64,000 nucleotides of DNA from Pedobacter cryoconitis (GTDB lineage: Bacteria > Bacteroidota > Bacteroidia > Sphingobacteriales > Sphingobacteriaceae). This document shows positions 10,714-27,209 of the stretch, in pieces; positions within the stretch are counted from its first letter, which is position 1, and each line of letters begins with the position of its first letter. Both the position numbers and the translations under genes were made by a program. Under the pieces are notes generated by a model that saw nothing but the letters and a program-made list of their open reading frames with translations, was not told where the DNA came from and did no database searches. The stretch is from assembly GCF_014200605.1 (NCBI RefSeq), contig NZ_JACHCE010000001.1:1404702-1468701 (forward strand), written 5' to 3'.

Positions 10714-10870
10714 CTATTTATATTTAACATTTATACATTTTTCTTATAGAAGATAACGACTATAATTTAGTCTCTTATTTGATATATTATACTTGTTCAT
10801 CTACCATTGAGGGCCACCTCATCATTCCACTATCAATAGGTATAATACAGGATAATGAAATTTCCGGGTT

Positions 10871-10886
10871 TTACGGTTAACCGTAA
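10871..10886. promoter_or_regulatory. Perfect 16-bp palindrome, probable operator
   Basis: TTACGGTTAACCGTAA is its own reverse complement. It lies 61 bases before the first gene of the nine-gene operon. A copy with one mismatch lies at 37084-37099, also 61 bases before the DUF3892 gene. Both copies are followed by the same context (AATTAAT, then GTTTAATTGACAA). A dimeric regulator binding here would control both loci; the regulator is not identified. Confidence 0.65.
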
Positions 10887-10947
10887 TTAATAGTACTGTT
10901 TAATTGACAATTTGCGCTATAATTATTAGCAACATAAACACACTATT

Positions 10948-11106
10948 ATGGCAAATTTTAAAGTTATCTGCATCATTAAACCCATTGTACACAGCTTTCA
11001 TTACCGTATCACACATATTGGATATAATGACACTAGTCAGGAAAAAACAATCAATAAGCAATATTTGAAATTGATTTCTTTTAATAACTCATACAATCAT
11101 TTTTAA
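10948..11106 (+). CDS. Short DUF3892-like leader protein, 52 aa
   Basis: Starts at ATG 10948 and stops 3 bases before the lipoprotein gene. The first 27 residues (MANFKVICIIKP then ITHIGYND) match the start of the 93-residue DUF3892 protein at 37161 (MASFKVICITKP, ITHIGYYD). The C-terminal half is unlike it and shorter, so it is either a truncated paralogue or a shortened family member used as operon leader. It shares promoter and operator with the gene at 37161. A degenerate second copy lies at 22473. Confidence 0.65.
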   Translation: MANFKVICIIKPIVHSFHYRITHIGYNDTSQEKTINKQYLKLISFNNSYNHF

Positions 11107-11109
11107 CTG

Positions 11110-12546
11110 ATGAAAAATAATTGTACAAGTTATATTCTGGTATTATTATCAGTTATTTTTTTTATCGGGTGCGTATCTTTCGATCTGCAGAAAAAAATCA
11201 AATCAGCTTCACTGGACCACGATGTTTCCAAATCTGAATTTCTTGATATACAAGCGGAACTTAAAGAACAAAAAGATTCCAAATACGATCGGTTTAAAAA
11301 TTCCGAAGTCTTGTATGAATATATAAAGGAGTCGTTAAGAAAGCAGCATATCACTGCCGAAGTCTGGAACCCTAAACCTTTGGCCGCATTGAAACCATTT
11401 AATGTGAATGTTTATTTAGAAAATTCAGTTAGTATGGACGGATACGTGGAAGGGGTAACGGATTTCGAAAACACTATATATGATATGCTTGCCCGTTTTA
11501 AAATGAACAGATTGGGCAATAGTTTAAATCTAAGTTATATAAATAATAAAATACCTTTTACTTATAAAAATGCTGGATCTGAGGATATTGACAGTTTTAT
11601 AAAGGATTTGAATCCCCTGACATTTGCGAAAAAGGGAGGTAATAGATCGAGCTCAGATTTAGCAGCAGTGATTAAAACTGTGCTGAATAAAACTGATGAC
11701 CAGAATTTATCTATACTCATATCCGATTTCGTCTTCTCGCCCGGAAGTGGCACTAATGCTAATCTTTATTTGAGCAGACAAAAAACCAACATTACATTAA
11801 GTTTCAGAGAGAAATTAGAGAAGACAAATCTTTCAATGATTGTATATCGGATGGCATCTGATTTTACAGGTATGTACTTTGATTTGAATAACAAGCCTAC
11901 CAGATATAATGGGAAACGGCCATATTATATCTGGATAATTGGTACAGAAAATCAATTGAGATCTGTATTAAGTCAGCAGGTTATTCATCAGTCCAATAAA
12001 AATTTCCTGGATAAAACTGGCTTTAAAAGCACTAAAAATCCTGAAAATATTCCATATAAAATCTTATTAAATGGTAGAACAGGTGATTTTAGTCCTGGTG
12101 TTCATAGTGATGAACTTATAAATGTAAAAGCATTGAATGGTCAATTTGGATTTTCATTAGCTTTAAATTTTAAGGATAATATCAGAGGTGATGACTACTT
12201 TCTTGATCCTGAAAATTTCAAAATAAATGATGGTTATCATATCATTTCAAGATTGCTTACTGAAAAGGAAAAAGAGAGCCCATCCTTAAAAGGGTTTACT
12301 CACCTGCTCAGTGTAAAAACTAATAAGTTTAATAATCAAAATATAGATATCATTATTCAGTCGAAATTACCCTCCTGGGTTGATCGTTCGACATCATCAG
12401 ACGATACCAATATCAAAGTCAATAAGGACGAGCAATTAAAAACTTTTGGCCTTAAATATCTAATTGAAGGGGTTTCTGATGCTTTTAAATTCTATCCTGA
12501 TGAGCAGCAGAACGTAATTTCCAAAATCAGAATTAAAATTAAATAA
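11110..12546 (+). CDS. vWA-like lipoprotein of the tubulin-actin-motor operon
   Basis: 478 residues. A lipoprotein signal ends FFIGC with the lipidated cysteine at 21. Residues about 95-300 look like a von Willebrand A fold: a first beta strand NVNVYLENSVSMDGY (ExSxS at 104-108 where MIDAS proteins have DxSxS), a GGNRSSSDLAAVI loop near 177 and an ILISDFVF strand near 202-209 supplying the second acidic residue. Metal binding may be altered by the D-to-E change. The remaining third is beta-rich and unrecognised. It should face the periplasm. Four bases separate it from the leader stop. The vWA call is by eye, not by search. Confidence 0.62.
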   Translation: MKNNCTSYILVLLSVIFFIGCVSFDLQKKIKSASLDHDVSKSEFLDIQAELKEQKDSKYDRFKNSEVLYEYIKESLRKQHITAEVWNPKPLAALKPFNVNVYLENSVSMDGYVEGVTDFENTIYDMLARFKMNRLGNSLNLSYINNKIPFTYKNAGSEDIDSFIKDLNPLTFAKKGGNRSSSDLAAVIKTVLNKTDDQNLSILISDFVFSPGSGTNANLYLSRQKTNITLSFREKLEKTNLSMIVYRMASDFTGMYFDLNNKPTRYNGKRPYYIWIIGTENQLRSVLSQQVIHQSNKNFLDKTGFKSTKNPENIPYKILLNGRTGDFSPGVHSDELINVKALNGQFGFSLALNFKDNIRGDDYFLDPENFKINDGYHIISRLLTEKEKESPSLKGFTHLLSVKTNKFNNQNIDIIIQSKLPSWVDRSTSSDDTNIKVNKDEQLKTFGLKYLIEGVSDAFKFYPDEQQNVISKIRIKIK

Positions 12547-12553
12547 CATTATT

Positions 12554-12997
12554 ATGAAAGAGTTTATTGCAATGATTTATGAGTGGTTTGGTTACGCAAC
12601 CGACCTGGGTGATCATTTAAGAGGTATGGATACTACGTGTACTCCATCTTTAGGTCCTGATCTTTACTTTCAGGTATTTATAACAATGCTGGTCCTGAAT
12701 TTAGTTCTATTCATTATGATGTACATTTTGATTGACAAGTTTACGACCAGGTTTAGCTATAAATCTTCGTGGTGGATTACAGCTATAATTGGGATGCTGA
12801 TAAATTTTGGAATTGCATCTTCACTTCCCCGTACAATTAGCATGTGTGATCAGTTACATATTGGATCGAGCGATTTAATGCTCTATGGTATCGCGAATGC
12901 AGTATGGAGCCTTGTCTTTTTTGCGTTGCTAACTTCTTTTCCATTCCCAAGGAACTTTAGCACAAACTGCAGACTTACTACTTTTTGGAAACCCTAA
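12554..12997 (+). CDS. Small polytopic membrane protein of the operon
   Basis: 147 residues with three clear hydrophobic segments (about 39-60, 72-93 and 112-130; the first reads FITMLVLNLVLFIMMYIL). No family recognised. It lies 7 bases after the lipoprotein gene and 11 bases before the tubulin-like gene, so it is almost certainly translated with them. It may anchor cytoplasmic subunits at the inner membrane; that is inference. Confidence 0.65.
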   Translation: MKEFIAMIYEWFGYATDLGDHLRGMDTTCTPSLGPDLYFQVFITMLVLNLVLFIMMYILIDKFTTRFSYKSSWWITAIIGMLINFGIASSLPRTISMCDQLHIGSSDLMLYGIANAVWSLVFFALLTSFPFPRNFSTNCRLTTFWKP

Positions 12998-13008
12998 TTT
13001 AATTCTAG

Positions 13009-14496
13009 ATGGCTAAATTATTTATATTCGGTATCGGTGGTACCGGTTCCCGGGTGATTAAATCACTGACAATGCTTTTGGCAAGCGGGATAAAATCATT
13101 TAATGATTTTGATATCATTCCAATCATTATTGACCCACATAAGGATAATGAAGATTTAAAGAGAACAGTTTCTATTTTAGATCATTATCAGAAAATAAAG
13201 GACAAAATAGGTACTAATAATGAATTCTTTGGTACTAAAATTACCACTCTGCAGTCTTTAGACAGTAAAAGAAGAATGGGAGGAACTTATTCTTTTACTT
13301 TGAAAGCAGTTTCCAATACAAAATTTAAGGATTATTTTTCTTACAGCTCTTTAAATGATGAAAATAAGAGCCTTGCTGAACTTTTATTTTCTGGAAAATC
13401 TATAGATACAAACAAAAAAGAAATAGATCTTCTGGATATTCCTATGGATATCGGATTTGTTGGGAACCCTAATATAGGCAGCGTGGTTTTGAATCAGTTT
13501 CGTGATTCAGATGAGTTCAAAGACTTTGCTAATAATTTCAGTGAAGGTGATAGAATATTTATAATAAGTTCAATTTTCGGCGGGACTGGTGCTGCTGGTT
13601 TCCCAATTGTTTTGAAAAACATTCGTAATGCAGTAAATAATAAAGAGCTTGCCAATGGTGGATACCTGCAAAATTCAGCGATAGGCGCACTAACTGTACT
13701 ACCTTATTTCAATATTGAAACGGATAAAGATAGCCCTATAAAAAGAGGTGATTTTATCGAAAAAACGAAAGCAGCTTTAGGCTATTATCAAAACAACGTC
13801 AATCCGATACTCAATGCAATGTATTATGTTGGAGATGATTATAGTGGGAAACCTTATAAGAATGATGCTGGTCAGGGTGGACAGAAAAATGATGCCCATT
13901 TCATAGAAATTGCCGGTGCCTTAGCTATCATAGACTTCATGAATACAGATTCAGATAGTTTATTATGCGAAGGCGGGAAGCCACTTTTAAATATCTGTAA
14001 AGAGTATAGTATCAAAGAAGATGCTGCTTTATTGAATTTTAAACATCTTAATGATTACTCCAACACTATTCTGAGAAGGAATCTGGTTCAATTCACTCTT
14101 TTTAAGAAATATCTTGATAAGCAGTTTGAGCAATCTATTGGAAATAAGACATGGAGCACTGATACGCCGGCTATTGATCATAGTTTTAAAAATAATCAGT
14201 TTTTTAATTCTAACCTGAAATCTTTCCTGAAAGCGTATGAGGACTGGTTGACCGAGCTAAATCAAAATTCAAGAGGCTTCGCTCCATTTAATCTTAGTTC
14301 TGATATAAACACCACTGTAAATGGTTTTGAAATGAGCAAGAGCATGTTTGGTCTGGGGAAATTTGACTTCGATAAGTTTGATATGGAATTAAATAGAACG
14401 GTGAGAAATGAAGTTTACTCTTCTGCTGATCAGAAGCTTATTCAGCTTTTCTTTAAAGCTACAAGTGCTATTGTGTCCAATAGATATGGATTTTAG
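13009..14496 (+). CDS. Tubulin/FtsZ-superfamily GTPase-like protein (Tubulin_2-like)
   Basis: 495 residues. The N-terminus FIFGIGGTGSR (residues 5-15) is the nucleotide-binding Rossmann loop, and SIFGGTGAAGFP (188-199) is the tubulin signature equivalent to GGGTGSG of FtsZ. The segment FDIIPIIIDPHKDNE (34-48) fits the second strand and ribose-binding loop. It is longer than FtsZ and lacks the FtsZ C-terminal tail, so it is not the division protein. It resembles the tubulin-like families placed by Makarova and Koonin (2010) in gene neighbourhoods with vWA and OmpA proteins. It probably polymerises with GTP near the inner membrane. Located third among the main subunits, between a membrane protein and the actin-fold gene. 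Confidence 0.78.
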   Translation: MAKLFIFGIGGTGSRVIKSLTMLLASGIKSFNDFDIIPIIIDPHKDNEDLKRTVSILDHYQKIKDKIGTNNEFFGTKITTLQSLDSKRRMGGTYSFTLKAVSNTKFKDYFSYSSLNDENKSLAELLFSGKSIDTNKKEIDLLDIPMDIGFVGNPNIGSVVLNQFRDSDEFKDFANNFSEGDRIFIISSIFGGTGAAGFPIVLKNIRNAVNNKELANGGYLQNSAIGALTVLPYFNIETDKDSPIKRGDFIEKTKAALGYYQNNVNPILNAMYYVGDDYSGKPYKNDAGQGGQKNDAHFIEIAGALAIIDFMNTDSDSLLCEGGKPLLNICKEYSIKEDAALLNFKHLNDYSNTILRRNLVQFTLFKKYLDKQFEQSIGNKTWSTDTPAIDHSFKNNQFFNSNLKSFLKAYEDWLTELNQNSRGFAPFNLSSDINTTVNGFEMSKSMFGLGKFDFDKFDMELNRTVRNEVYSSADQKLIQLFFKATSAIVSNRYGF

Positions 14497-14510
14497 AAAT
14501 TAAAAAAAAT

Positions 14511-17500
14511 ATGAGCAAAGTATTAGGATATACAAATAATGGAGGAGAAGATTGGTTTGTTTCTTCTAACTACGGAAATATTGAGATTCAGGGTATTTCT
14601 GACCCCGAAGGAGGACATACACTTGATGCGCCTACTTCTATTCCAAGTCCTTTCGCAAGGATGGACCTGGTAAGAAAGGCCTTTGAAAATATAGTGTCAG
14701 ATCCATCCCTTAGTTTTTCTCAGCAAGGAAATAAGATATTAGTTAGTAAAGAAGATGAAAGATTAGTTTCTCAATGTTTTGATCTGGCTGAAATATTATT
14801 CTTTTATAATAACTATAAAGATAGTATAGAGATCATTGAATGGGAGAAATCAACTCAACTCAACAAGCTTAAATCGAGTGCAGAACCGGGACATAAAATG
14901 TTGGGTGAGGCTCTTGAGTTATATCTGCAGCAGGATGAAGCTACTTTCAATTTTAACAGGATGAAAAATATTTATATCATCAAATATAATCATCAGGTAA
15001 TTGGCGGCACATCTCCATTAACCCTGTTTTTCCCTACTGCTAATGATATTTCAGGTTTTGGTTTAAAAAGTAATAAAGGAAAAACTTTTTTTAAAGATGT
15101 TGTACCCTTGTATGAAAGAGATGATGACTTTCAGAAGTACATCTACTTGCTTTTTGATATTGATGAAAAAAAAGGTTCTGATGGGCCCGAAATAAATCTG
15201 CTTGCATCCAATATGAAGGAATTGGTTGCATATCTGGACAAGAACCTGAAATTTTTAAAGGTAATCAACAAGAATGCGCTGTATGATGATCTGAATAGAT
15301 TAAACAAATCAGACCTCAATAATAATTATATCGATCTTAACTCTAATAACGCCAGTCATACTGTTGAGGTTTTAGGTGTTCCGTTAAAAACGATTGATCC
15401 GGAAGTAGTTATAAATTCAATTAAGAAGAGTGATTTTGTTATTTTCTCTTCTAAAACCACCAATGAAAAGAAACCCCTGGTATTAGCACAGGGTGCTAAT
15501 AATTCATTAATGTATGTTAACTCAATTTGGGATAGCAATACCAGGGTGCCTTATTTCAATCCAGAAACAAATCTTGATTTGAGAAAGTTGCCTGGACATG
15601 ATATCATTTATCCTTATCTGACTGTAAGTGATTTCCTGGAGCCAGGTATTATAAGATTAGTTTACCCTATAAATAACGAAAAGTATTTTAATGGTAATCT
15701 GGTACTTAAGAATCCTGAAAGTACAAAAGGTTACTTGTTACCACTTAAACCATTGTTTTTTGAATATTTTGATGTTGAGGAATTAGTGAATGGAGGGATG
15801 GGTAAACCTGTTATATCTATTCAGGAAACTTCAATTGCATCCGCGGTCAGGGTATTGTTAAAAATACCAATTAACAATGGAAGAGCATATATTACATTTG
15901 AAAGAACATATCATAATGATAAAAATGTAGATCTCGCCACAAACAAAGGAATTATCAATGAACATCAATTTGGTGTTACGCTGTTCCCATTTATAAAATA
16001 TGAAGATTCTACGACTCCATTTTATAAAATCCAATTAATAGACCGGGATGTTACCGGTGATTTTATTGATGCAGAATACAACTTGAAATTTTACAGCAAT
16101 ACTTCAAAAACAGCTCTGAATGTTGATAATGAATGTTTAAGAAGTAAAAAGCAAAAGGGAGAGGTCACTAAGATCACATCCAAAAGTTTTAGTGTGAATT
16201 CAACTTTTGACTATATCCAGGTTGATAATAAATTTTCTAAAGGTATAATTATTCCAAAGTGGTATCCATTCTCAAATGCCGGAGATTCATTCACTTTTGC
16301 TGTAGATTTTGGAACAACGAACAGCCATATTGAGTTTTCAAAGAATAACTCAGCACCCCGGCCATTTGAAATAACAGAAGCAGAAATTCAGGCTGTACCT
16401 CTTTTTAGTAATAAAACAGATCATAATTTCTCTGGATCAGCTGCAATAGACATTAGAACTGCTATCATAAAGGAATTCATTCCAGATACAATTGGAAAAA
16501 ATACACCCTATAGCTTTCCCCATAGAACTGCTATTTCACAAAGTAAAACGCATGCTCCTTCAAATGGCGGTATTGTATTAAATGAATTTAATATCCCCTT
16601 TATATTCGAGAAGACAATTGATAATAACAATAATTTCTTTACCAATCTGAAATGGAATAGTAAGGAGCCTAATAATGAATCCCGTGTTACTGCATTCATA
16701 GAGCAAATATTATTTATGATTAGAAACAAGGTGATCATTAGCGGTGGAAATCTGGAAACCACGAAAATCATCTGGACATATCCTACAAGTATGTCTCCAG
16801 CCAGAAAAAGCCATTTTAAGTCTACCTGGGATAAATTATTTAAGAAATATATTAATACCCACGATGAACCTGTTGATGTAAGTGAGTCGGTAGCGCCATA
16901 TTATTATTTCCTGGGTAATTCTATGTTAGAAGGACTTGGAAACGGTGTGAGTGTACTTATGGATATCGGTGGCGGAACCTCTGATGTTGTTGTTTATGAA
17001 AGCAATATTCCTAAACTCTTATCATCTTATAAATTTGCTGGTAATACCATTTTTGGTGATGGCTATAAAGATTTTGGGGATATTCAAAATAATCAGCTGG
17101 TTAACAGGTATAAAGAAGATTATACTGATTTGTTAAATGAACACAATAAGAATCTGTCTTCTATTGCCAATGATATTTATTCGCGTCAAAAGTCATCAGA
17201 TTATAATGCGCTATTGTTTTCGCTTTCTGGTAATTATGAAATAAAACAGAAGGAATTGTTTGATTATAACAAGAAACTATCCTCAGATCAGGATTTGAAA
17301 ATTATCTTTCTTTATTTCTATTCGGCCAAGATATATCACATGGCCCAATTAATGAAAGTTAATCAGGTTGAGCTGCCTATGAACATTATTTTTAGTGGAA
17401 ATGGTTCAAAAATTATAAGCATAATCACTTCTGATAAAAATCTGATCAGTGACCTGACTAAAAATATATTTTCAAAGGTTTATGGTATAACATCATATCC

Positions 17501-17975
17501 TTCTTCGGGTCTTAAAATAAATCTTGAAAAAGAATTTCCAAAGGAAGTTACCTGTAAAGGTGCCTTGATGTATCAAAAATTGGGTAAACAGAATATAAAT
17601 GTAGCTGATCTTAAGCGAACATTAACTTGTGTAGAAGATATTGGAATATTTAAATTAACGAATGGGCAGATAGATGATACTGTTCAGGACAAAGTCGTTG
17701 CTCAGGTTAAAGACTTCAACAAACTATTTATTGAGTTAAATAATTCATTGAATTTCGAAGATTACTTTGATATATCGCAAGCCTCATTTGCCAAATTTAA
17801 AGAGATTGCAGATCTGCATTTAAAGGCCTTTCTTAAAGCTGGTATTGCATTTAATAATAGAATGGATGGCGTTTCTACTGAAGCTGATGTCCCTATTTCA
17901 GAAACATTATTCTTTTATCCAATAGTGGAGACCATTCAACAACTAATCAATGAAATTGCTGTATTAAGAAGCTAA
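14511..17975 (+). CDS. Actin/Hsp70-fold ATPase with large unknown N-terminal half
   Basis: 1154 residues. The C-terminal half has the phosphate motifs of the actin/Hsp70/MreB fold: FAVDFGTTNSHIEF (about 598-611, phosphate 1), VLMDIGGGTSDVVVYE (about 811-826, phosphate 2) and IIFSGNGSKI (about 960, adenosine motif). The N-terminal 590 residues are beta-rich and I recognise no family. No transmembrane segment is visible, so it should be cytoplasmic. It starts 14 bases after the tubulin-like gene and ends 7 bases before the next. An actin-fold and a tubulin-fold filament candidate in one operon is uncommon. Confidence 0.78.
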   Translation: MSKVLGYTNNGGEDWFVSSNYGNIEIQGISDPEGGHTLDAPTSIPSPFARMDLVRKAFENIVSDPSLSFSQQGNKILVSKEDERLVSQCFDLAEILFFYNNYKDSIEIIEWEKSTQLNKLKSSAEPGHKMLGEALELYLQQDEATFNFNRMKNIYIIKYNHQVIGGTSPLTLFFPTANDISGFGLKSNKGKTFFKDVVPLYERDDDFQKYIYLLFDIDEKKGSDGPEINLLASNMKELVAYLDKNLKFLKVINKNALYDDLNRLNKSDLNNNYIDLNSNNASHTVEVLGVPLKTIDPEVVINSIKKSDFVIFSSKTTNEKKPLVLAQGANNSLMYVNSIWDSNTRVPYFNPETNLDLRKLPGHDIIYPYLTVSDFLEPGIIRLVYPINNEKYFNGNLVLKNPESTKGYLLPLKPLFFEYFDVEELVNGGMGKPVISIQETSIASAVRVLLKIPINNGRAYITFERTYHNDKNVDLATNKGIINEHQFGVTLFPFIKYEDSTTPFYKIQLIDRDVTGDFIDAEYNLKFYSNTSKTALNVDNECLRSKKQKGEVTKITSKSFSVNSTFDYIQVDNKFSKGIIIPKWYPFSNAGDSFTFAVDFGTTNSHIEFSKNNSAPRPFEITEAEIQAVPLFSNKTDHNFSGSAAIDIRTAIIKEFIPDTIGKNTPYSFPHRTAISQSKTHAPSNGGIVLNEFNIPFIFEKTIDNNNNFFTNLKWNSKEPNNESRVTAFIEQILFMIRNKVIISGGNLETTKIIWTYPTSMSPARKSHFKSTWDKLFKKYINTHDEPVDVSESVAPYYYFLGNSMLEGLGNGVSVLMDIGGGTSDVVVYESNIPKLLSSYKFAGNTIFGDGYKDFGDIQNNQLVNRYKEDYTDLLNEHNKNLSSIANDIYSRQKSSDYNALLFSLSGNYEIKQKELFDYNKKLSSDQDLKIIFLYFYSAKIYHMAQLMKVNQVELPMNIIFSGNGSKIISIITSDKNLISDLTKNIFSKVYGITSYPSSGLKINLEKEFPKEVTCKGALMYQKLGKQNINVADLKRTLTCVEDIGIFKLTNGQIDDTVQDKVVAQVKDFNKLFIELNNSLNFEDYFDISQASFAKFKEIADLHLKAFLKAGIAFNNRMDGVSTEADVPISETLFFYPIVETIQQLINEIAVLRS

Positions 17976-17982
17976 AATTAAC

Positions 17983-18753
17983 ATGAGAATATATTTAATA
18001 ATAGTGTGTTTCTTACTGATTTCACAAGAGACATTTGCGCAAAAAAATACGGTCCCTACTGAAAATGTTCATCACTGGTGGTCAAATTTATATTTTATCC
18101 TGGCTTTCGTGGGCGGTTGTATGATAACGGCAGCAATTCAGTTTGCTTTTAGAAAAGGTTCGGTAAATCACTTTGAGAAACAAGGGAGTGAAAAGCTTAA
18201 TAATAGATTGAATTTGGTTGTGGATGACAATAAAAGGTTGAAAAAGGAAAATAGGGATCTTGAAGCTGAATGCAGAACGTTAAGATTAAAATTTGATAAT
18301 CCTTTGGTTGAAGAGCTTGCTAAGGATGATGTTAGTAACAATAATGAATTACCGGTATATGACGAAAAGCCCAGGCAAGTAGAGTTTGACATAGTAAATA
18401 AACTCCCGGGTCTGACCCATACTAAGGAATCTTTAGCTGTTCTATATTTTCCAAATCCAAATCTGGACGGAGAATTTAAAAATAGCGAAGGCTCAAACAG
18501 CTTTATTGAGGGGGCTTCGATTTATAAATTTTCTCTTAAATCTTCTACCGAAGCATATTTTGAATTTTGTGAGGATAGGTCAGCAGTTAGTATGGCGCTG
18601 AATCATAGAAATGAATCCATATTGGCCGTGGCTCAGGAAGCCAATGCATATAATTCTGGTGCAACAAAAATTGCTAGTGATCAAAGAGGAGAGGCAGTGC
18701 TGGAAGGCGCAAATTGGATAGTAAAAAATAAGGCTAAAATAAAATATATATAA
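17983..18753 (+). CDS. Membrane-anchored coiled-coil protein
   Basis: 256 residues. An N-terminal signal-like helix (1-19), a transmembrane helix (about 34-52), a charged coiled coil (about 68-105, rich in KKENRDLEAEC) and a C-terminal globular part (about 135-256, ending KNKAKIKYI). No family recognised. Its stop is followed after one base by the ATG of the MotA-like gene, so the two are translationally coupled and probably stay together in a complex. Confidence 0.62.
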   Translation: MRIYLIIVCFLLISQETFAQKNTVPTENVHHWWSNLYFILAFVGGCMITAAIQFAFRKGSVNHFEKQGSEKLNNRLNLVVDDNKRLKKENRDLEAECRTLRLKFDNPLVEELAKDDVSNNNELPVYDEKPRQVEFDIVNKLPGLTHTKESLAVLYFPNPNLDGEFKNSEGSNSFIEGASIYKFSLKSSTEAYFEFCEDRSAVSMALNHRNESILAVAQEANAYNSGATKIASDQRGEAVLEGANWIVKNKAKIKYI

Positions 18754-18754
18754 T

Positions 18755-20401
18755 ATGATTGTCGACCTGATAGAATATACTGTTTTCCTGATAATTGTTG
18801 GAATCCAGATATCCTCCTTTATAAAAACGCGTGCTAAGATTAATGAGTTTAAAATGTCGGTTCCGGATCTTGACAATATTGTGATTACGGATGTTGAAAT
18901 CACAGATAACCAAATTGATTCATTTATCGATAAAGGGAGTTTTGAAGAAATAGAAAACCTTAAGGTTGATTCTTCAAATTTGATTCGATCGGAAGAGGAA
19001 TCTTACGATGAGTCTTATGATGAAGAACGTTATGATGATGAACCTGGTGAAGAGGAATATGACGATGAGACGCCGGCTGCTGATCAGGAAATCAGGAAAC
19101 ATAAAGTCAGAGTTGTTGGCTGTTCCAGATTAGATAGCAAAGTATTTGGGAAAATCCTTAGTTCTTTGAACAAATACTTAGTCAGGAATAAACACTCGGT
19201 AGCAGATTTTACGCTAATAAAGGATATTGTAGAAAGAAACATCAATACGGTTGAAGATGAAGTGCATTTAACGTTATCAACGCCACTTTATCTTGGCCTG
19301 ATGGGGACTATGCTTGGTATTGTTATCGGTTTATTTAGTATGTCGGATATGTTAAATACGACTATGACAGATAAAGAACTTAGTTCGGCTATAGGAATGT
19401 TATTAGGAAGTGTTAAGGTTGCTATGATAGCAAGTTTTATCGGACTTGCATTAACCATTTATAACTCTTCTATTGTTTTTAAGGGTACAAAATATAATCT
19501 GGAAGCGAAGAAGAATGAGTTTTATACGTTTATTCAGGTTGAATTATTGCCATCGCTTAATCAGGGAATTGGGGCTACTCTAGAATCCTTGCAACGCAAC
19601 CTATCGGGATTTAATGAGAAATTTGATACAAATTTAGATAGGCTTTCCACTGTGTTTGATAAAAACTATGATTCTATTGTTCTGCAGAAAAAGTTGCTGG
19701 ATCAATTGGATAAAAATAAGGTGTCCGAAATGACAAAATATAATCTTCAGGTATTTAAGGATTTAAATGTTTCATTAGGACAGTTTGAGAAATTTAACGA
19801 GCTGTTTGCAAATGTAAATCATTACCTCAATGGTACTTACAGGTTAACAGATAAGACAAATGAACTTCTGGAGAGAACAGAGAATTTTCAGACAATTGCT
19901 AACAATATATCTGAAACTGTACAATCCAGTACCCATTTAACGGACTATTTGACTAAACATTTCAAAGATTTAGATAATCATAAACAAAAGGTAGATGAAG
20001 CTATCGTTAATATTGGCTTTGGAATTAAAGATACATTTGATGAATTAAAAACTAATCTTGAATCCTCAAGTCAACGATTAAATGAAGAAGCTATTAATCG
20101 GAACATCGCTAGCCAGAAGGTTTTTGAATCTTTTACTGAAGAATTAAAGACATCTTTCTCAACCCAGCTGGAAACATTTAATACTGTGATAGAAGAGAAA
20201 AAGTCGAACCTGGATTATCTAAAACATCTTGAGCCTCTTCTGAATGAGGTTAAATCTCATAAAACGAGTAAGAACTCAGATCAATTGTATGAGCAAATTG
20301 TAGAATTGACAAACATTATGTCTTCATCAAATCAGATGCTGAAACATATTGAAGCAGATGTCAAAACTCCTCTATTAAGAAAGTTATTCCAGATAAAGTA
20401 G
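18755..20401 (+). CDS. MotA/TolQ/ExbB-like proton-channel subunit with long coiled coil
   Basis: 548 residues, about twice the length of MotA or ExbB. It has an N-terminal helix (about 7-24), an acidic low-complexity stretch (about 82-112, EEE and DDE repeats), two core helices (LYLGLMGTMLGIVIGLFSM about 184-202; GSVKVAMIASFIGLALTIY about 220-238) and a long coiled coil from about 270 to 520. The core helices match the TolQ/MotA pore pair. Long coiled coils after the pore are also found in ZorA of Zorya. It directly precedes the MotB-like partner, so they should form a proton-driven stator-type complex. Confidence 0.75.
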   Translation: MIVDLIEYTVFLIIVGIQISSFIKTRAKINEFKMSVPDLDNIVITDVEITDNQIDSFIDKGSFEEIENLKVDSSNLIRSEEESYDESYDEERYDDEPGEEEYDDETPAADQEIRKHKVRVVGCSRLDSKVFGKILSSLNKYLVRNKHSVADFTLIKDIVERNINTVEDEVHLTLSTPLYLGLMGTMLGIVIGLFSMSDMLNTTMTDKELSSAIGMLLGSVKVAMIASFIGLALTIYNSSIVFKGTKYNLEAKKNEFYTFIQVELLPSLNQGIGATLESLQRNLSGFNEKFDTNLDRLSTVFDKNYDSIVLQKKLLDQLDKNKVSEMTKYNLQVFKDLNVSLGQFEKFNELFANVNHYLNGTYRLTDKTNELLERTENFQTIANNISETVQSSTHLTDYLTKHFKDLDNHKQKVDEAIVNIGFGIKDTFDELKTNLESSSQRLNEEAINRNIASQKVFESFTEELKTSFSTQLETFNTVIEEKKSNLDYLKHLEPLLNEVKSHKTSKNSDQLYEQIVELTNIMSSSNQMLKHIEADVKTPLLRKLFQIK

Positions 20402-20407
20402 CAGGAT

Positions 20408-21085
20408 ATGAGAAAAGATAAAAGTGATTTTTTTTGGCCGAGTTTTTCCGACCTGATGACAAGCTTGTTTTTTATTATGCTGGTGCTTTATGTGCTTACC
20501 TATGTTAAACTTAAGCTAAGTAATAAAGTTTTAGAACAACAATTACAAATAATTAAAACTGTAGAAGCGAACTTGCAGCCTCTTAAAAATGATAAAGAGC
20601 TATTCGAATATGAAGAGAATTACAACAGGTTTAAACTGGCTTTTGATGTTAAATTTGAGGCCGACAAGTTTGCAATATTACAGGATGGCCATCTTATAAA
20701 TGCCGTAGCTACACGAGCTAAAATTACTCAGGCAGGTGAAAAATTGAAAGCTGTAATTGATAGGCTAAAACTAGAAAAGGAAAAAGATCCTGCACTAAGT
20801 AAGGTCTCTTATATCTTAGTAATTGCAGGTTATGCTTCTAAAGACTTTAATCCTAAGCGCATGGTCCATAATTATGAGTTAAGTTACTTTAGGGCATTAA
20901 GCCTTTGGTCATATTGGAAAAATAATGTGGGTATTGATTTTGAATCCCCGGAGTATAAAAACCTGATTGATTTGCAGATTTCTGGTAATGGATGGGGAGG
21001 AGTAGGTCGTTTACCTGGAAACCAGGAGTCTGATAATCAAAGATTTTTAATACAGATCTTTCCAAAGATTGGCGATATTAAATAA
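20408..21085 (+). CDS. MotB/OmpA-like motor partner
   Basis: 225 residues: a short cytoplasmic start, one transmembrane helix with FSDLMTSLFFIMLVLYVL (about 13-30), a helical linker (35-60) and a C-terminal OmpA-like region (ILVIAGYASKDFNPKR, then ELSYFRALSLWSYW and a final basic GVGR). Asp15 in SDLMT sits where MotB/ExbD/ZorB carry the proton-accepting aspartate. It follows the MotA-like gene by 6 bases. Its stop overlaps the start of the next gene (TAATG). Confidence 0.78.
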   Translation: MRKDKSDFFWPSFSDLMTSLFFIMLVLYVLTYVKLKLSNKVLEQQLQIIKTVEANLQPLKNDKELFEYEENYNRFKLAFDVKFEADKFAILQDGHLINAVATRAKITQAGEKLKAVIDRLKLEKEKDPALSKVSYILVIAGYASKDFNPKRMVHNYELSYFRALSLWSYWKNNVGIDFESPEYKNLIDLQISGNGWGGVGRLPGNQESDNQRFLIQIFPKIGDIK

Positions 21086-21228
21086 TGAAGTGGGCAAGTC
21101 TATGTATAAGCTGTATACTTTCAATATTGATTTTCTTAAGCTGTTCCAGATCTGGGAAAAGGAGGTTTAGAGAAGATCATATTAATAATGAAGCGACCAG
21201 GTACACTGGAATTGCAACAATAAAGTAG
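21085..21228 (+). pseudogene. Lipoprotein truncated by the IS3 element
   Basis: The ATG at 21085 overlaps the preceding stop codon. The product would be 47 residues: a lipoprotein signal with lipobox ILIFLSC (Cys20), then a basic stretch. After base 21206 the frame runs into the left border of the IS, reads TGIATIK and stops. The original gene was therefore the last member of the operon and has lost its 3' part. Whether the shortened product works is unknown. Confidence 0.75.
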
Positions 21229-21236
21229 ACATTCTG

Positions 21237-22067
21237 TTAAGCTGCAATATTTTGTTTGTTTAATTTTCTTCCAAATTCCTCTGGGGACAAGTATCCCAGA
21301 GCAGAATGTAGTCTTTTACGGTTATACCAAGTCTCAATATATTCGAAAACGACGCGGGCTGCTTGCTCTTTGTCAGTAAACTTGTGCTGATATGCACATT
21401 CCGCCTTTAGTGTTTTGAAGAAGCTTTCTGCTACTGCGTTGTCCCAACAATTACCTTTCCTACTCATACTTCTGGTGATCAATGGATATTTTTCCAGCAA
21501 CCATCGAAATTCATTGCAGGCATATTGAACACCACGATCAGAATGAAAAATAAGCTCCTGAGTAACTGGTCGTCTTGATTGGGCCATTTTAAAGCCAGGG
21601 ATTACTGTATCATTTGCTTTCATCGTTGTGCTTAACGCCCAGCCGATGATTTTTCTATCACCCAGATCGATCACTATTGTCAGATAGAGCCAGCCTTGCC
21701 GAGTCCTGATATAGGTAATGTCTGATACCCACACAGCATCCAATATTCCTGGCTTGAAATCACGGTCTAATACATTGTCCGGCACAGGAAATTTATGACT
21801 AGAGTCTGTAGTGACTTTAAATTTCTTCTTCACAACGCTTCTAAGCTTTGCTTTTCTCATGATTCTGGCAACCCTTGGCCTGGAAATCCTAATCGCTTTT
21901 TTACGGAGCTCCAGGGTAATTCTGGGACTGCCATATATCTTTTTGCTGTTTTCAAAAGCTTGTAACACCTCCGCTTCAATCATTTGATTTTCAATACTTC
22001 TATTTGATGGACTACTGATGGTCCATTTGTAAAATCCAGCTCTACTTACTCTAAAAACTGAACACAT
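21237..22067 (-). CDS. IS3-family transposase OrfB (DDE integrase)
   Basis: 276 residues with an HTH_21-type N-terminus (VSRAGFYKW) and the rve/DDE core: WVSDITYIRTRQGWLYL (first Asp), FHSDRGVQYA (second Asp) and NCWDNAVAESFFKTLK (Glu). It probably starts further upstream or by frameshift from orfA, because the frame is open through residues equivalent to FIKNHSK. Catalyses transposition of its own element; appears intact. Confidence 0.92.
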   Translation of the reverse strand: MCSVFRVSRAGFYKWTISSPSNRSIENQMIEAEVLQAFENSKKIYGSPRITLELRKKAIRISRPRVARIMRKAKLRSVVKKKFKVTTDSSHKFPVPDNVLDRDFKPGILDAVWVSDITYIRTRQGWLYLTIVIDLGDRKIIGWALSTTMKANDTVIPGFKMAQSRRPVTQELIFHSDRGVQYACNEFRWLLEKYPLITRSMSRKGNCWDNAVAESFFKTLKAECAYQHKFTDKEQAARVVFEYIETWYNRKRLHSALGYLSPEEFGRKLNKQNIAA

Positions 22068-22099
22068 CTTCCCAACTAAAGATATCTTGCTATGATTCT

Positions 22100-22414
22100 T
22101 TATGAACCTGAATATTTGTTGTCGCCCTTGGAGAAGATGTTGATAGCCTTTTTTAGAATGTCACGCTCTATCTGTGTTTCCCGTAATTCTTTCTTCAATA
22201 AAGCTAGTTCTTACTCAGCTGCGCTGAGGATAACTTTACCATTCCCAGGAAAGCTATTGCCTTGTTTACTCGAAAATTCTTTCCGCCAGCGGTACAACAA
22301 CGCAGAACTAACATCTAGTTCTTTGGCAAGGGCACTCAGATCTGTGCGGGTGTTACTCAGTTCAACACTCATCATCTTGAACTCTTTCGGGTATGCTTTT
22401 CGTTCTCTTGACAT
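22100..22414 (-). pseudogene. IS3-family OrfA with in-frame nonsense codon
   Basis: The likely start is the ATG at 22414 (MSRERKAYPKEFK). An HTH reading DLSALAKELDVSSALLYRW follows. The frame is stopped by TAA at 22211-22213 (GAG TAA GAA) and then continues open as [22 protein letters not shown] to 22100, the usual leucine-zipper end. A CAA-to-TAA change would explain this, so the element is probably not autonomous. Confidence 0.75.
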
Positions 22415-22472
22415 AATTTCTGTTAAGTTATCAAATTCACTTAACTTGTTGTCCACTCAAATGTAGCAACTC

Positions 22473-22707
22473 CAAATTTTAAAGTTATCTGCATCATTAA
22501 ACCCATTGTACACAGCTCTCATTACCGTATCACACACATATTGGATATAATGACACTAGTCAGGAAAAAACAATCAATAAGCAATATTTGAAATTGATTT
22601 CTTTTAATAACTCATACAATCATTTTTAACTGATGAAAAATAATTGTACAAGTTATATTCTGGTATTATTATCAGTTATTTTTTTTAGAAAATTCAGTTA
22701 GTATGGA
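22473..22707 (+). repeat. Degenerate second copy of the operon start
   Basis: Bases 22473-22688 repeat 10952-11167 almost exactly (most of the leader gene and the first codons of the vWA-like lipoprotein), with one substitution and a 2-base insertion (CACACACATATT against CACACATATT). It then jumps, at a short shared TTTA, to the equivalent of 11417-11438 and ends. The copy therefore has a deletion of about 250 bases and begins exactly at the IS border. It encodes nothing intact. Confidence 0.88.
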
Positions 22708-23321: not shown

Positions 23322-24641
23322 TTAGTTAATTAGTGACATCGGAGAAGCAGTTTCACTAAGTTTTCTCTTCATTAATATTCTTTCTACATCAGGACCACTT
23401 TGCCATTTAGCATCATGCATGTTTTCACAGTAAACTAAAAGATACATAGTCCCATCTGGCATTGTTAAAATATTATCAGTAATATGACCACTCATTCCGT
23501 CATATTCCGTCATTACATCAGGAGTTGAGGAAATAGAATTACCTGTATCAGTGGGGGCTTCATAATAAAAATAAAACTCAGGAGTATTGAATGGTTGAAC
23601 TGTTCCGGTTGTAGGTGTCTGGTCTGGAGCTGGGAAATATCCAGAATTTGCCGGATTTGTTGTTGGAGATGGATTTCCGCCGATTTCAGTACTGCCATCA
23701 GGAGATTCCGCTTCTAGATTGTATGCTGATCTATTAGATTTACCTCCAAGTCTATTAATCAAATCTCCTATACTGGTAGAACCATTAGTCAAATCTTTAA
23801 AGTATTTACCATATGCCGCTGCTTGTCCCGGATTAATTCCGCCGTTACCGTCACCATAACCTTTAGCATCCATATTAGCTCGAATAGCAGTAGCTAAATC
23901 ATGCATGTCAATGGTTGTCCCCATACCTGAAACATCAGAATTATTAAATTTAATCTTTCCACCATTACCTACGTTTGATGTGTATACGGCAAGGCCGTTA
24001 TCTACAAGGCTACTGATGATTAAATCATTACGAGCCATATTGAAATCAGTGTTGGCGGCATTTGAGAATGTTGGAACAATACCTCCTATTAATCCGCCGG
24101 CTGTTCCACCACCAATTGGTCCGAAGTATTTAGTCAGACCAACACCTCCAAGAGTTTCGCCTGTAACAACTCCAAGAAGTGCATTATTAACACCATTCCA
24201 AAAATTTTCATAAGTTATATCAGAACTGCTTTTGATGCCCATTGCATACCCATCTCTATCGAAAAAAGCTTTAGATGAGGAATCTAAGTATATTTTAGCT
24301 GCATTATTCAAAGTACCATTAATTCCAACCCAAGTTGAATTAATGGTTACCCCTGGCAATGATCCGGTAGTAGTATTACCAGCAGATACTGAACCGGATG
24401 TTGCCCAAAAACCCCAGCTTCCATTATGTTGAACGATGTCCATACTGGTTAACCCACCCTGCCCGGATAATTCCCAGTGTGTATTTTGAATCGCATCGGT
24501 AATCCCATTCTTAGCTATATATTGCATTAGCTCCATCCAGGTTAAAAAAGTTATTCCCCCTAGAATACTGGACAGATTTTTTTTTGGAATCAGTTCGAAT
24601 TCTTTTTCGATTTGATTTAATGAAAGTACATTTTTCTTCAT
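23322..24641 (-). CDS. 439-aa secreted precursor with double-glycine leader
   Basis: The first 29 residues form a leader ending NLSSILGG, with the acidic/hydrophobic spacing of GG-type leaders (LNQIEKEFEL). A peptidase-containing ABC transporter is encoded divergently, so cleavage after GG is expected. The mature part of about 410 residues is far longer than a bacteriocin. It contains a glycine-rich hydrophobic segment (about 150-195, GGGTAGGLIGGIVP) and an aromatic/acidic C-terminus with cysteine. No known enzymatic domain is recognised. It could be a toxin, bacteriocin-like effector or surface protein. Confidence 0.65.
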   Translation of the reverse strand: MKKNVLSLNQIEKEFELIPKKNLSSILGGITFLTWMELMQYIAKNGITDAIQNTHWELSGQGGLTSMDIVQHNGSWGFWATSGSVSAGNTTTGSLPGVTINSTWVGINGTLNNAAKIYLDSSSKAFFDRDGYAMGIKSSSDITYENFWNGVNNALLGVVTGETLGGVGLTKYFGPIGGGTAGGLIGGIVPTFSNAANTDFNMARNDLIISSLVDNGLAVYTSNVGNGGKIKFNNSDVSGMGTTIDMHDLATAIRANMDAKGYGDGNGGINPGQAAAYGKYFKDLTNGSTSIGDLINRLGGKSNRSAYNLEAESPDGSTEIGGNPSPTTNPANSGYFPAPDQTPTTGTVQPFNTPEFYFYYEAPTDTGNSISSTPDVMTEYDGMSGHITDNILTMPDGTMYLLVYCENMHDAKWQSGPDVERILMKRKLSETASPMSLIN

Positions 24642-24909
24642 AGAGGTTGTTTTTTATCCTTTTAGGTTAAAATATATTAATTAAATATCTATTCTGTTGT
24701 AGTTATAAAAGTATATTTAATAAAGGTAGTTAAAAAAAATATTTTACATATTTACGACGCAAAAATAGATTTGATTATTTCTAACCTTTTTACTATAATT
24801 ATGATTTTGCGAATTAGCACCAATATAGGTATTAAACATGCCAGGTTTTTAATAAGTAATTCAGTTATTAACTCATTTAAATATTCCTTATTAAACTAAT
24901 AATTTTTAC
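24642..24909. promoter_or_regulatory. Divergent promoter region of the export cassette
   Basis: These 268 AT-rich bases separate the precursor gene (minus) from the transporter gene (plus) and must hold both promoters. On the minus strand TATTTTTG (24767-24760) fits the Bacteroidota -7 consensus TAnnTTTG; I do not find a convincing -33 match. No coding frame is seen. Confidence 0.35.
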
Positions 24910-27195
24910 ATGAAATTCTCGGGCTTTCCTAATGACAGGCAATTAGATATGATGGATTGTGGGCCTGCCTGCTTAAAGATGATAGCAAAGCATTATAATA
25001 GGTTCTATTCTTTACAATATCTTCGTGATAAATGTGGAATAACCAAAGAAGGCGTATCATTTGCTGATATAAGCTATGCCGCTGAGGATATTGGATTACG
25101 TACACTCTCCATCAAATGCACGCTTAATGACTTAATGCTCAAAATACCTTTGCCAGTTATTGTGCACTGGGATAATAGTCATTTTGTTGTTGTTTATAAA
25201 ACAAAGCCCAAGTCCGTAAAGACCACAAAAGCTAAATTGATTTTCGGAGAAATCTCTGAGACGATAAATGGAGACATTTATGTTTCTGACCCAGCAAAAG
25301 GTTATGTTAAGTATTCAACTGCTGAATTTGCTACTAAATGGGTGAAAGAAGGCAGTGATAAAGGAATCTTGATGGCTATTGAGCCACAGGCAGATTTTTA
25401 CGAAAAACAAGAAAAGGAAAATCATTTGCGAAGGCAAACCTTCAATAGTTTCTTAGGTTATTTTGCACCTTATAAAAAGAGCTTTGTTAATCTTTTTATA
25501 GTCATGCTCCTGGTAACTATTCTACAAGGGCTACTGCCATTTATTAGTAAGGCAGTTATTGATGTAGGTATACAAACTCATGATATTGATTTTATAAACA
25601 TTGTTTTGGCTGCTAATATCGCTATTGTAGTTAGTGTGCTATTGAGTAATATGGCAAGAGACTGGATACTTTTACATGTTACTTCAAGAGTAAACATCGC
25701 TTTGATTTCCGATTACCTGATTAAATTAATGCGTTTGCCTATCACTTTCTTTGAGAATAAAATGACAGGTGATATATTACAAAGGGCCCAGGACCATGAA
25801 CGAATAAGATCGTTCATTATGAACAATTCATTGAATATGCTCTTTTCTACATTGACATTTGTCGTGTTTGCTATTATAATGTTTGTATATAATCCGGTTA
25901 TATTCTACCTATTTATAGGAGGCAGTGTAATATATGTGATATGGGTGATGGCCTTTTTGAAAATCCGGAAAAAACTAGATTGGGAATATTTTGAACTTGT
26001 TTCCAAAAATCAAAGTTATTGGGTAGAAACCATTGGGAGCATTCAGGATATTAAAATAAATAACTATGAAAAGCATAAACGTTGGAAGTGGGAGAATATA
26101 CAAGCCCGTTTATACAAAGTTAATCTTCGTGTTTTAAGTGTAACAAATACCCAGAATCTGGGTGCTCAATTTATAGACAGCCTTAAGAATTTATTTATTA
26201 CTTTTTATTGTGCGAAAGCAGTGATTTCGGGTGAAATTACTTTTGGGGTGATGATTTCAATACAGTTTATTATAGGTATGCTAAATGCACCAGTTGTGCA
26301 GTTTATACAATTTATAATCTCTTTCCAGTTCGCTAAAATTAGCTTTTTACGCCTGAATGAAATCCACCAGCTAGATGATGAACATGAACAAGTTGGACAG
26401 AATAGCATAGAATTACCTCAAAATAAAAGTTTGGTAATTAATAATGTTGCATTTCAGTATACTCCAAATGGGAAGTTAGTCTTACAAGGAATCAGGCTGA
26501 TTATCCCAGAAGGCAAGGTTACAGCCATTGTAGGGGATAGCGGAAGTGGCAAATCGACATTACTAAAACTTTTGTTAAGATTATATAAACCTAGCTATGG
26601 TGAGATTAGTATTGGTGATATGAATATTAATAATGTTAGTCTTCGCCAATGGAGAGATAAATGCGGGGCTGTTATGCAGGATGGGAAGATTTTCAACGAT
26701 ACTATTCTGAATAACATTGTACTTGATGATGAGAAAATTGATTATGAAAGATTAAAAAAAGCGTTGGATACTGCTAATATTTCACAGGAAATTGAGCAAT
26801 TGCCCATGGGATATCAAACTGTCATGGGAGAGCAGGGAAGAGGGCTCAGTGGTGGACAAAAACAACGTGTCTTGATTGCGCGTGCATTATATAAAGATCC
26901 AGATTATCTATTTTTCGATGAAGCTACTAATTCACTTGACACTATTAATGAGCAAAAAATCACTGCTGCATTAGACAATGTTTTTAAGGATAAGACAGTA
27001 ATTGTCGTAGCCCATCGTTTAAGTACGATCCGTAAGGCTGATCAAATTGTAGTAATGCGCCAGGGCTCTATTGTTGAAGTCGGTAATCATCAAAGTCTAA
27101 TGAATAGTAAAGGTCGTTATTATCAGTTAGTACAATCTCAAGTAGAATTAGTCAGCGTAATTGCAGAGCCAATAACTTCAATATCTGGTCATTAA
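24910..27195 (+). CDS. Peptidase-containing ABC transporter (C39, PCAT type)
   Basis: 761 residues. An N-terminal C39 cysteine peptidase (1-150) has the catalytic Cys in MMDCGPACLKM and the His in HWDNSHFVVVY, which cuts double-glycine leaders. Six transmembrane helices follow (about 185-470), then an ABC ATPase with Walker A GDSGSGKST (about 541-549), signature LSGGQKQR and Walker B YLFFDEATNSLD. It processes and exports the GG-leader product across the inner membrane, working with the HlyD-like adaptor 14 bases downstream. All key residues are present. Confidence 0.93.
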   Translation: MKFSGFPNDRQLDMMDCGPACLKMIAKHYNRFYSLQYLRDKCGITKEGVSFADISYAAEDIGLRTLSIKCTLNDLMLKIPLPVIVHWDNSHFVVVYKTKPKSVKTTKAKLIFGEISETINGDIYVSDPAKGYVKYSTAEFATKWVKEGSDKGILMAIEPQADFYEKQEKENHLRRQTFNSFLGYFAPYKKSFVNLFIVMLLVTILQGLLPFISKAVIDVGIQTHDIDFINIVLAANIAIVVSVLLSNMARDWILLHVTSRVNIALISDYLIKLMRLPITFFENKMTGDILQRAQDHERIRSFIMNNSLNMLFSTLTFVVFAIIMFVYNPVIFYLFIGGSVIYVIWVMAFLKIRKKLDWEYFELVSKNQSYWVETIGSIQDIKINNYEKHKRWKWENIQARLYKVNLRVLSVTNTQNLGAQFIDSLKNLFITFYCAKAVISGEITFGVMISIQFIIGMLNAPVVQFIQFIISFQFAKISFLRLNEIHQLDDEHEQVGQNSIELPQNKSLVINNVAFQYTPNGKLVLQGIRLIIPEGKVTAIVGDSGSGKSTLLKLLLRLYKPSYGEISIGDMNINNVSLRQWRDKCGAVMQDGKIFNDTILNNIVLDDEKIDYERLKKALDTANISQEIEQLPMGYQTVMGEQGRGLSGGQKQRVLIARALYKDPDYLFFDEATNSLDTINEQKITAALDNVFKDKTVIVVAHRLSTIRKADQIVVMRQGSIVEVGNHQSLMNSKGRYYQLVQSQVELVSVIAEPITSISGH

Positions 27196-27209
27196 CATTA
27201 ATCATTGTC

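What the first reader, a model, noticed from the sequence alone, without database searches (positions are those of the whole stretch)
10948..21228. Nine-gene operon joining tubulin-like and actin-like NTPases with a MotA/MotB-type motor
Gaps of 1-14 bases or overlaps link a DUF3892-like leader, vWA-like lipoprotein, membrane protein, tubulin-fold protein (GGTGSR and FGGTGAAGFP), actin/Hsp70-fold protein (DFGTTNSH and DIGGGTSD), coiled-coil membrane protein, MotA-like channel, MotB/OmpA-like partner and truncated lipoprotein. Makarova and Koonin (2010) described FtsZ-like families near vWA and OmpA proteins; the actin-fold protein and MotA-like subunit here make a fuller machine spanning cytoplasm to outer membrane. 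Possible roles: envelope remodelling, phage defence or contact-dependent function.
Basis: partly seen in the sequence, partly recalled or inferred. Interest (0 to 1): 0.95.

Follow-up and report, generated by a model that had tools for sequence, protein, structure and literature searches.

The report
Tubulin-actin-motor operon with periplasmic hydrolases
A bacterial gene cluster found in many Bacteroidota pairs a tubulin-like and an actin-like protein with a flagellar-motor-type channel and cell-envelope lipoproteins; it is predicted to form one machine across the inner membrane that likely controls proteases and nucleases in the envelope, possibly against stress or invaders.

Summary
The operon is as described: a short leader, seven full-length genes and one truncated gene, 10948-21228, spacing -1 to 14 bases. 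The tubulin-like protein passes Pfam Tubulin_2's cut-off; the 1154-aa partner carries five actin/Hsp70 motifs in order and matches FtsA by profile (E about 1e-7, 39 columns). The MotA/MotB-type pair keeps the membrane aspartate and a peptidoglycan-binding motif. In relatives the actin-like gene follows the tubulin-like gene in 93 of 93 loci; vWA lipoprotein 82/87, MotA 29/70, MotB 25/70, so the motor is a module, not the core. The ninth gene, cut here beside an IS3-like element, corresponds in relatives to a lipoprotein protease, in seven loci followed by an SNase. Unrelated hydrolases share an N-terminal C-x-SG tag (7 of 8 SNases at the operon's end, 0 of 14 elsewhere; post hoc). Phage defence is not established: no enrichment of known defence genes at a recurrent site, and the tubulin-like family is in 36/36 and 81/81 sampled genomes of two genera but 9/89 in the window's genus. 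Best reading: a proton-driven, cytoskeleton-coupled envelope machine controlling periplasmic hydrolases; a new variant of FtsZl1/vWA/OmpA and tubulin/Hsp70 conflict systems. No structure could be predicted.

The parts
10860..10920 (+). palindrome TTACGGTTAACCGTAA (10871-10886) and conserved block upstream of the leader, shared only with 37086 in this genome
   Evidence: 2 hits in the window, 0.06 expected; 2 in the whole genome, 3 mismatches allowed
10948..11106 (+). 52-aa leader ORF, DNA similar to the start of the ORF at 37162
   Evidence: no Pfam match
11110..12546 (+). vWA-like lipoprotein (MIDAS-like ExSxS, Glu in place of Asp)
   Evidence: E 29, S 29, S 29 of 30, second Asp 30 of 30, lipobox Cys invariant in 30; no Pfam VWA match for the window protein
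12554..12997 (+). small membrane protein (two hydrophobic stretches here, 2-4 in relatives)
   Evidence: upstream of the tubulin-like gene in 75 of 87 loci
13009..14496 (+). tubulin/FtsZ-like protein (Tubulin_2)
14511..17975 (+). actin/Hsp70-like protein with a long N-terminal region of unknown fold
17983..18753 (+). membrane protein, coiled-coil type by eye (no predictor run)
   Evidence: family in 63 of 70 loci
18755..20401 (+). MotA/ZorA-like channel subunit with a long C-terminal tail
20408..21085 (+). MotB/ZorB-like subunit, membrane Asp15 and OmpA-type N-x-x-L-S-x-x-R motif
21085..21228 (+). truncated lipoprotein with the tag CSRSGKRR; relatives at this place are proteases
21229..22470 (-). 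IS3-like element, ends approximate (two transposase-type ORFs, minus strand; family by motif, recalled)
22473..22687 (+). second copy (99%) of the leader and first bases of the vWA gene

Best explanation
The operon encodes a conserved set of proteins predicted to form an envelope-spanning machine in which a tubulin-like and an actin-like NTPase would assemble in the cytoplasm and be coupled through a likely proton-driven MotA/MotB-type channel to lipoproteins of the periplasm. The periplasmic side would consist of a vWA-like lipoprotein and a terminal hydrolase, in relatives a retropepsin-like or trypsin-like lipoprotein protease, sometimes with a nuclease. The most likely working: MotB grips peptidoglycan, ion flow turns or strains MotA, whose long cytoplasmic tail engages the actin/tubulin assembly, and this deploys or activates the tagged hydrolases when the envelope is disturbed by stress or an invader. 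Shown: gene order, families, motifs, distribution, shared tag. Inferred: complex formation, polymerisation, ion flow, direction of signalling, location of the products, and purpose.
For: Actin-like gene follows tubulin-like gene in 93/93 loci, vWA lipoprotein upstream in 82/87; the pair is also kept in a second subfamily at about 30% identity. Glycine loops of the tubulin-like protein invariant in 47 sequences, phosphate-2 Asp residues of the actin-like protein in 57. MotB: Asp15 in the membrane helix and the N, L, S, R of the motif invariant in 18 of 18; MotA matches ZorA (E 1.2e-5) and MotB matches ZorB1 (E 1.3e-13). Terminal genes: gag-asp_proteas E 2.5e-14, Trypsin_2 E 2.8e-26, SNase E 2.2e-27, Exo_endo_phos E 1.5e-6, and a PHROG nuclease in a viral contig. 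Shared lipoprotein tag: 7/8 operon-end SNases against 0/14 other SNases, two loci holding one of each. For ZorAB, passages of PMC11890865 report that the membrane aspartate, peptidoglycan binding and the ZorA tail are needed for function.
Against: 41 of 70 loci lack a recognisable MotA and 45 of 70 a MotB, so the core can do without the motor; Spirosoma loci without the motor still carry the tag, so the tag does not follow the motor. No experiment or structure. The tubulin-like family does not match FtsZ significantly by profile (0.5%). The tag pattern was refined after reading sequences, and some loci are close relatives. In the window the terminal gene is broken. No enrichment of known defence genes was found.
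Confidence: 0.42

Rival explanations
1. A constitutive envelope-maintenance or lipoprotein-handling machine: the NTPases and the motor place or turn over a class of tagged lipoproteins during growth, with no role against invaders.
For: The tubulin-like family is in 36 of 36 genomes of the genus that includes Spirosoma and in 81 of 81 sampled genomes of another genus; a fixed upstream neighbour in 12 Spirosoma loci and purK/purE-like neighbours in four other loci (gene names recalled). Tag shared by different folds, with and without the motor.
Against: Patchy in the window's genus (9 of 89 close members), where several lie beside a TPR-histidine kinase, a response regulator and a HSDR_N restriction-type gene. 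In a few genomes of the two genera the gene is split or has a stop (G558, G564, G566, G625).
Confidence: 0.3
2. A Zorya-like phage defence system in which the actin/tubulin pair replaces the ZorC/D/E effectors and periplasmic nucleases attack incoming DNA.
For: ZorA/ZorB matches; terminal nucleases of two folds (SNase, Exo_endo_phos) and a PHROG nuclease of unchecked fold; accessory in the window's genus; the site c22-c11-c14 also holds a DO-GTPase1-like operon with protease and SNase genes of the same families in L153.
Against: No ZorC, ZorD or ZorE among seven operon proteins; scores far under NCBIfam Zorya cut-offs; 28 PADLOC families among 135 genes of the site against 79 among 135 control genes; found in every sampled genome of two genera; no hit in 50,697 phage records, and two weak ones (under 60% identity) in 72,556 plasmid records.
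Confidence: 0.18
3. A motility or secretion apparatus in which the motor drives surface movement or export.
For: MotA/MotB relatives power gliding and type 9 secretion (passage in PMC11890865).
Against: No outer-membrane channel or TonB-type partner was recognised in the operon; the motor is often absent.
Confidence: 0.06

Closest known systems
FtsZl1/vWA/OmpA predicted membrane-remodelling systems (Makarova and Koonin 2010, PMC2875224)
   Same: Tubulin_2-type protein, vWA-type gene, OmpA-type peptidoglycan-binding protein in one predicted operon
   Different: No P-loop GTPase or kinase was recognised among the operon proteins; an actin/Hsp70-like gene is constant; MotA-type channel; terminal protease/nuclease lipoproteins. 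The main text names no MotA and no actin-like partner; part 1 of 5 and passages were read, supplementary files were not.
GTPase-centric (DO-GTPase/GAP1-N2) conflict systems with tubulin, vWA and HSP70 (Kaur et al. 2020, PMC7159879)
   Same: Tubulin, vWA and HSP70-type parts; a trypsin fusion in some; membrane and peptidoglycan-binding parts
   Different: [quoted passage not shown] here no DO-GTPase or GAP1 was found, the tubulin- and actin-like genes go together, and a MotA/MotB pair occurs
Zorya (ZorA/ZorB)
   Same: MotA/MotB-type pair, long A-subunit tail, peptidoglycan-binding-type B subunit
   Different: No ZorC/D/E; tubulin-like and actin-like proteins instead; sequence scores low
FtsA/FtsZ division pair
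   Same: Actin-like beside tubulin-like protein
   Different: FtsZ and FtsA of this genome are on another contig; matches of this family in 17 of 196 sampled genera only; large extra N-terminal region; no FtsZ C-terminal domain match

Membership tests
Tubulin_2 (PF13809, FtsZl1) | profile match over the curated cut-off | tested here: met
   28.9 bits against 27; 43 of 47 sequences match at E 0.01. In a six-frame search of 61 genomes with the Pfam model the window's own genome gave no match at E 0.001, so the match is marginal
Tubulin_2 (PF13809, FtsZl1) | vWA gene in the operon | tested here: inconclusive
   MIDAS-like ExSxS in 29 of 30 at each position and Asp in 30 of 30, but no Pfam VWA match for the window protein
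Tubulin/FtsZ fold | profile similarity to FtsZ or solved tubulins | tested here: inconclusive
   PF00091 E 6.7e-4 below cut-off, 42 of 47 at E 0.01; hhalign to FtsZ 0.5%; no PDB sequence match; structure tool off
Actin/Hsp70 ATPase superfamily | five nucleotide-site motifs in order | tested here: met
   Present, with small variations, in the 15 of 57 rows shown (motif names recalled); FtsA profile 94%, E about 1e-7 over 39 columns, DnaK 4.8%. PDB matches weak: MreB E 0.017, behind a designed protein at 0.013
MotA/MotB-type stator | membrane Asp and peptidoglycan-binding domain in the B subunit | tested here: met
   Asp15 and N, L, S, R of the motif invariant in 18 of 18; Pfam OmpA only E 0.0097, under its cut-off
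Zorya | ZorA and ZorB at curated cut-offs | tested here: not met
   21.8 bits against 500, 16.9 against 400
Zorya | ZorC/ZorD or ZorE | tested here: not met
   none listed for seven operon proteins
GTPase-centric conflict system | DO-GTPase and GAP1 | tested here: not met
   no such Pfam match among nine operon proteins at E up to 1
Anti-phage defence | protection against phage | not testable with these tools
   needs plating assays

The most novel reading that the evidence does not exclude
Bacteroidota carry a machine that joins a tubulin-type and an actin-type NTPase to a proton-driven, peptidoglycan-anchored rotary stator and uses it to handle its own class of lipoprotein hydrolases (proteases and nucleases) marked by a C-x-S-G-R/K address tag, swapped like cartridges between lineages.
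Probability: 0.3. Interest if true: 0.92.

Novelty: new variant of a known kind. Interest (0 to 1): 0.72.

Why it matters
A constant tubulin-actin gene pair tied to a rotary-type stator would be a cytoskeletal device unlike division or plasmid segregation; its tubulin-like member is in every sampled genome of two genera, and none of the papers seen assigns it a function. The shared tag on unrelated hydrolases gives a directly testable handle on what the machine moves or controls.

Tried and rejected
Structure prediction of both NTPases: both jobs failed and the tool was then off; replaced by Pfam scans of relatives and hhalign against FtsZ, FtsA and DnaK. Defence-island idea: 135 of 209 eligible genes from 20 loci at the c22-c11-c14 site, chosen for having no close tubulin-like hit at that place, against 135 of 271 from 20 other stretches of the same or other genomes of the genus; 28 against 79 PADLOC families at E 1e-5, so no enrichment. 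Limits: the tool shows only the first 25 families and counts families, not genes; one of the 20 loci (L140) turned out to hold part of a second-subfamily operon, G019 and G063 have that subfamily elsewhere, and G643, G645 and G647 were not searched for the tubulin-like gene; the window's own operon is not at this site. Phage and plasmid origin: no phage record, two plasmid records, two viral contigs at 33% identity. Rfam and tRNA scans of the window: nothing. Promoter- and terminator-like sites were 71 against 57.6 (sd 6.8) and 6 against 5.8 in shuffles, not informative. Counts leave out L001-L029 (short or duplicate), L110/L111 (viral) and L048 (tubulin-like gene split); the second subfamily counts among the upstream misses; and most loci are the best 80 of at least 582 relatives, so close relatives are over-represented. 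Tag: three patterns were used, so the Fisher value 4.7e-5 is descriptive only and ignores relatedness.

Full report
Observation. The nine ORFs lie as described, one strand, spacing -1 to 14 bases. The window belongs to a genome of the genus that includes Pedobacter: handles G053, G072 and G014 coincide in contig length and position with Pedobacter loci L030, L031 and L032.

Tubulin-like protein. Pfam Tubulin_2 at 28.9 bits (cut-off 27) and PF00091 at E 6.7e-4, under its cut-off. Of 47 sequences, window included, 43 match Tubulin_2 and 42 PF00091 at E 0.01. GGTG-x-R and GGTGA-x-G are invariant in 47 sequences. Against: hhalign to 22 Bacteroidia FtsZ proteins is not significant (0.5%), although its best stretch includes the second glycine loop; no PDB sequence matches; and a six-frame search with the Pfam model over 61 genomes did not find the window's own copy at E 0.001.

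Actin-like protein. The second half holds phosphate-1 (DFGTTN), connect-1, an ESxAP element, phosphate-2 (DIGGGTSD) and the adenosine motif (FSGxGSK) in order, with small variations, in the 15 of 57 rows shown (motif names recalled). The profile of 57 sequences matches FtsA at 94%, E about 1e-7 over 39 columns, DnaK at 4.8%, and not the two unrelated profiles used as controls. PDB matches are weak: MreB E 0.017, FtsA 0.17, behind a designed protein at 0.013. The first 560 residues match nothing tested.

Motor pair. MotA-like: PADLOC ZorA E 1.2e-5, Pfam MotA_ExbB E 0.0018 under cut-off, long C-terminal tail with an Apolipoprotein-type (coiled-coil-like) match under cut-off. MotB-like: ZorB1 E 1.3e-13; Asp15 in the membrane helix and N, L, S, R of the OmpA-type motif invariant in 18 sequences. 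Zorya membership is not met (no ZorC/D/E).

Neighbourhood. One genome-contig scan kept the best 80 loci of at least 582 relatives. With loci, 101 tubulin-like loci were considered: actin-like gene downstream 93/93, vWA lipoprotein upstream 82/87, small membrane protein 75/87, coiled-coil-type protein 63/70, MotA 29/70, MotB 25/70, denominators being loci with enough sequence. Loci named Spirosoma and Prevotella mostly lack the motor. So the core is vWA-membrane-tubulin-actin-coiled coil, and the motor is a module.

Terminal genes. After the core or motor often comes a lipoprotein. In relatives it is retropepsin-like (cluster c7, 23 loci by similarity clustering, of which L039 and L070 are longer proteins outside the operon; Pfam E 2.5e-14 for one member) or trypsin-like (c23, 5 loci; E 2.8e-26 for one member). 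An SNase-type gene (c13, 8 loci; E 2.2e-27 for one member) follows the protease in seven loci and MotB in L032. L126 has an Exo_endo_phos protein after MotB, the viral contig L110 a PHROG nuclease. In the window the gene is truncated beside an IS3-like element; which enzyme it encoded cannot be told. No base was restored.

Tag. Behind the lipobox cysteine these unrelated hydrolases share C-(x)-S-G-(R/K/N): window CSRSGKRR; L030 trypsin-like CSRSGKK and SNase CSDSGNPK; L036 protease CTQSGRRK and SNase CNSNSGNRK. First test: 20 of 28 terminal lipoproteins, against 1 of 53 vWA lipoproteins and 2 of 87 others; these two are both in L117, its terminal gene and its vWA lipoprotein. SNases: 7 of 8 at the operon's end against 0 of 14 elsewhere, with L031 and L035 holding one of each. 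Retropepsin-like relatives in five Prevotella-type loci lack it, whereas those of Spirosoma, also without the motor, have it, so the tag goes with the operon family rather than with the motor. It differs from the acidic surface-export signal C-x-K-(D/E)2 of Bacteroidetes (passages of PMC5080379).

Distribution. 9 of 89 genomes of the window's genus have a close member (E up to 1e-60, 37-100% identity) and 15 more a second subfamily. In the class 22 of 395, in 17 of 196 genera. All 36 genomes of the genus of G377 (Spirosoma by coincident contig places of L050, L052 and L054) and all 81 sampled of the genus of G457 (unnamed); only the tubulin-like gene was searched there, and it is split or holds a stop in G558, G564, G566 and G625. 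Of five loci read in the second genus, three have MotA and MotB, one is cut off after MotA, and a more distant one carries a DnaK-like gene instead. The second subfamily (L121-L123) joins the tubulin- and actin-like genes to TerD-type proteins (PF02342 E 2.5e-58 for one) and, in L121 and L122, a TerC-like protein (recalled).

Defence association. In the window's genus several members lie beside a TPR-histidine kinase (c11), a response regulator (c14) and a HSDR_N gene (c30). c11 has close relatives (E up to 1e-80) in 71 of 99 genomes. In 20 loci at that site other operons occur, one with a DO-GTPase1-like protein (25 bits, cut-off 27) plus untagged retropepsin- and SNase-type genes (L153). Known defence genes were not enriched there. 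The window's own operon is not at this site.

Literature. Makarova and Koonin 2010: part 1 of 5 and passages read. Kaur et al. 2020: passages and section 29 read. PMC11890865, PMC12505986, PMC9871819 and PMC5080379: passages only. Searches listed no paper that, by title and abstract start, joins these parts; preprints and most subscription papers are not held.

Verdict.

Noticed in passing
window 31514-35617 (-) and 35762-36823 (-): LRR-Roc-COR-TIR protein of 1367 aa (a ROCO GTPase with a TIR end) beside a HNH endonuclease gene: a likely conflict system of its own.
   Followed up: partly
window 37086-37442 (+): Longer, intact relative of the leader ORF with the same upstream palindrome block as the operon; these are the only two sites in the genome.
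   Followed up: partly
window 22473-22687 (+): 99% copy of the operon's leader and first bases of its vWA gene behind the IS-like element, suggesting an IS-linked rearrangement.
   Followed up: partly
window 23322-28532: Protein with a GG-type leader (by eye), C39-peptidase ABC transporter and HlyD protein: a bacteriocin-type export cluster.
   Followed up: no
L121, L122, L123: Second subfamily: tubulin-like and 1300-aa actin-like genes with two TerD-type proteins, an OmpA/MotB-like protein and, in two of them, a TerC-like protein.
   Followed up: partly
L110, L111 (viral contigs): Divergent tub-act-MotA-MotB operon on contigs filed as viral, in L110 followed by a nuclease gene; whether they are truly viral was not settled.
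   Followed up: partly
L116: Variant with a separate DnaK-like gene after the actin-like gene (by eye).
   Followed up: no
L153:7641-12517: DO-GTPase1-like operon ending in untagged retropepsin- and SNase-type genes at the same site as some tub-act operons.
   Followed up: partly
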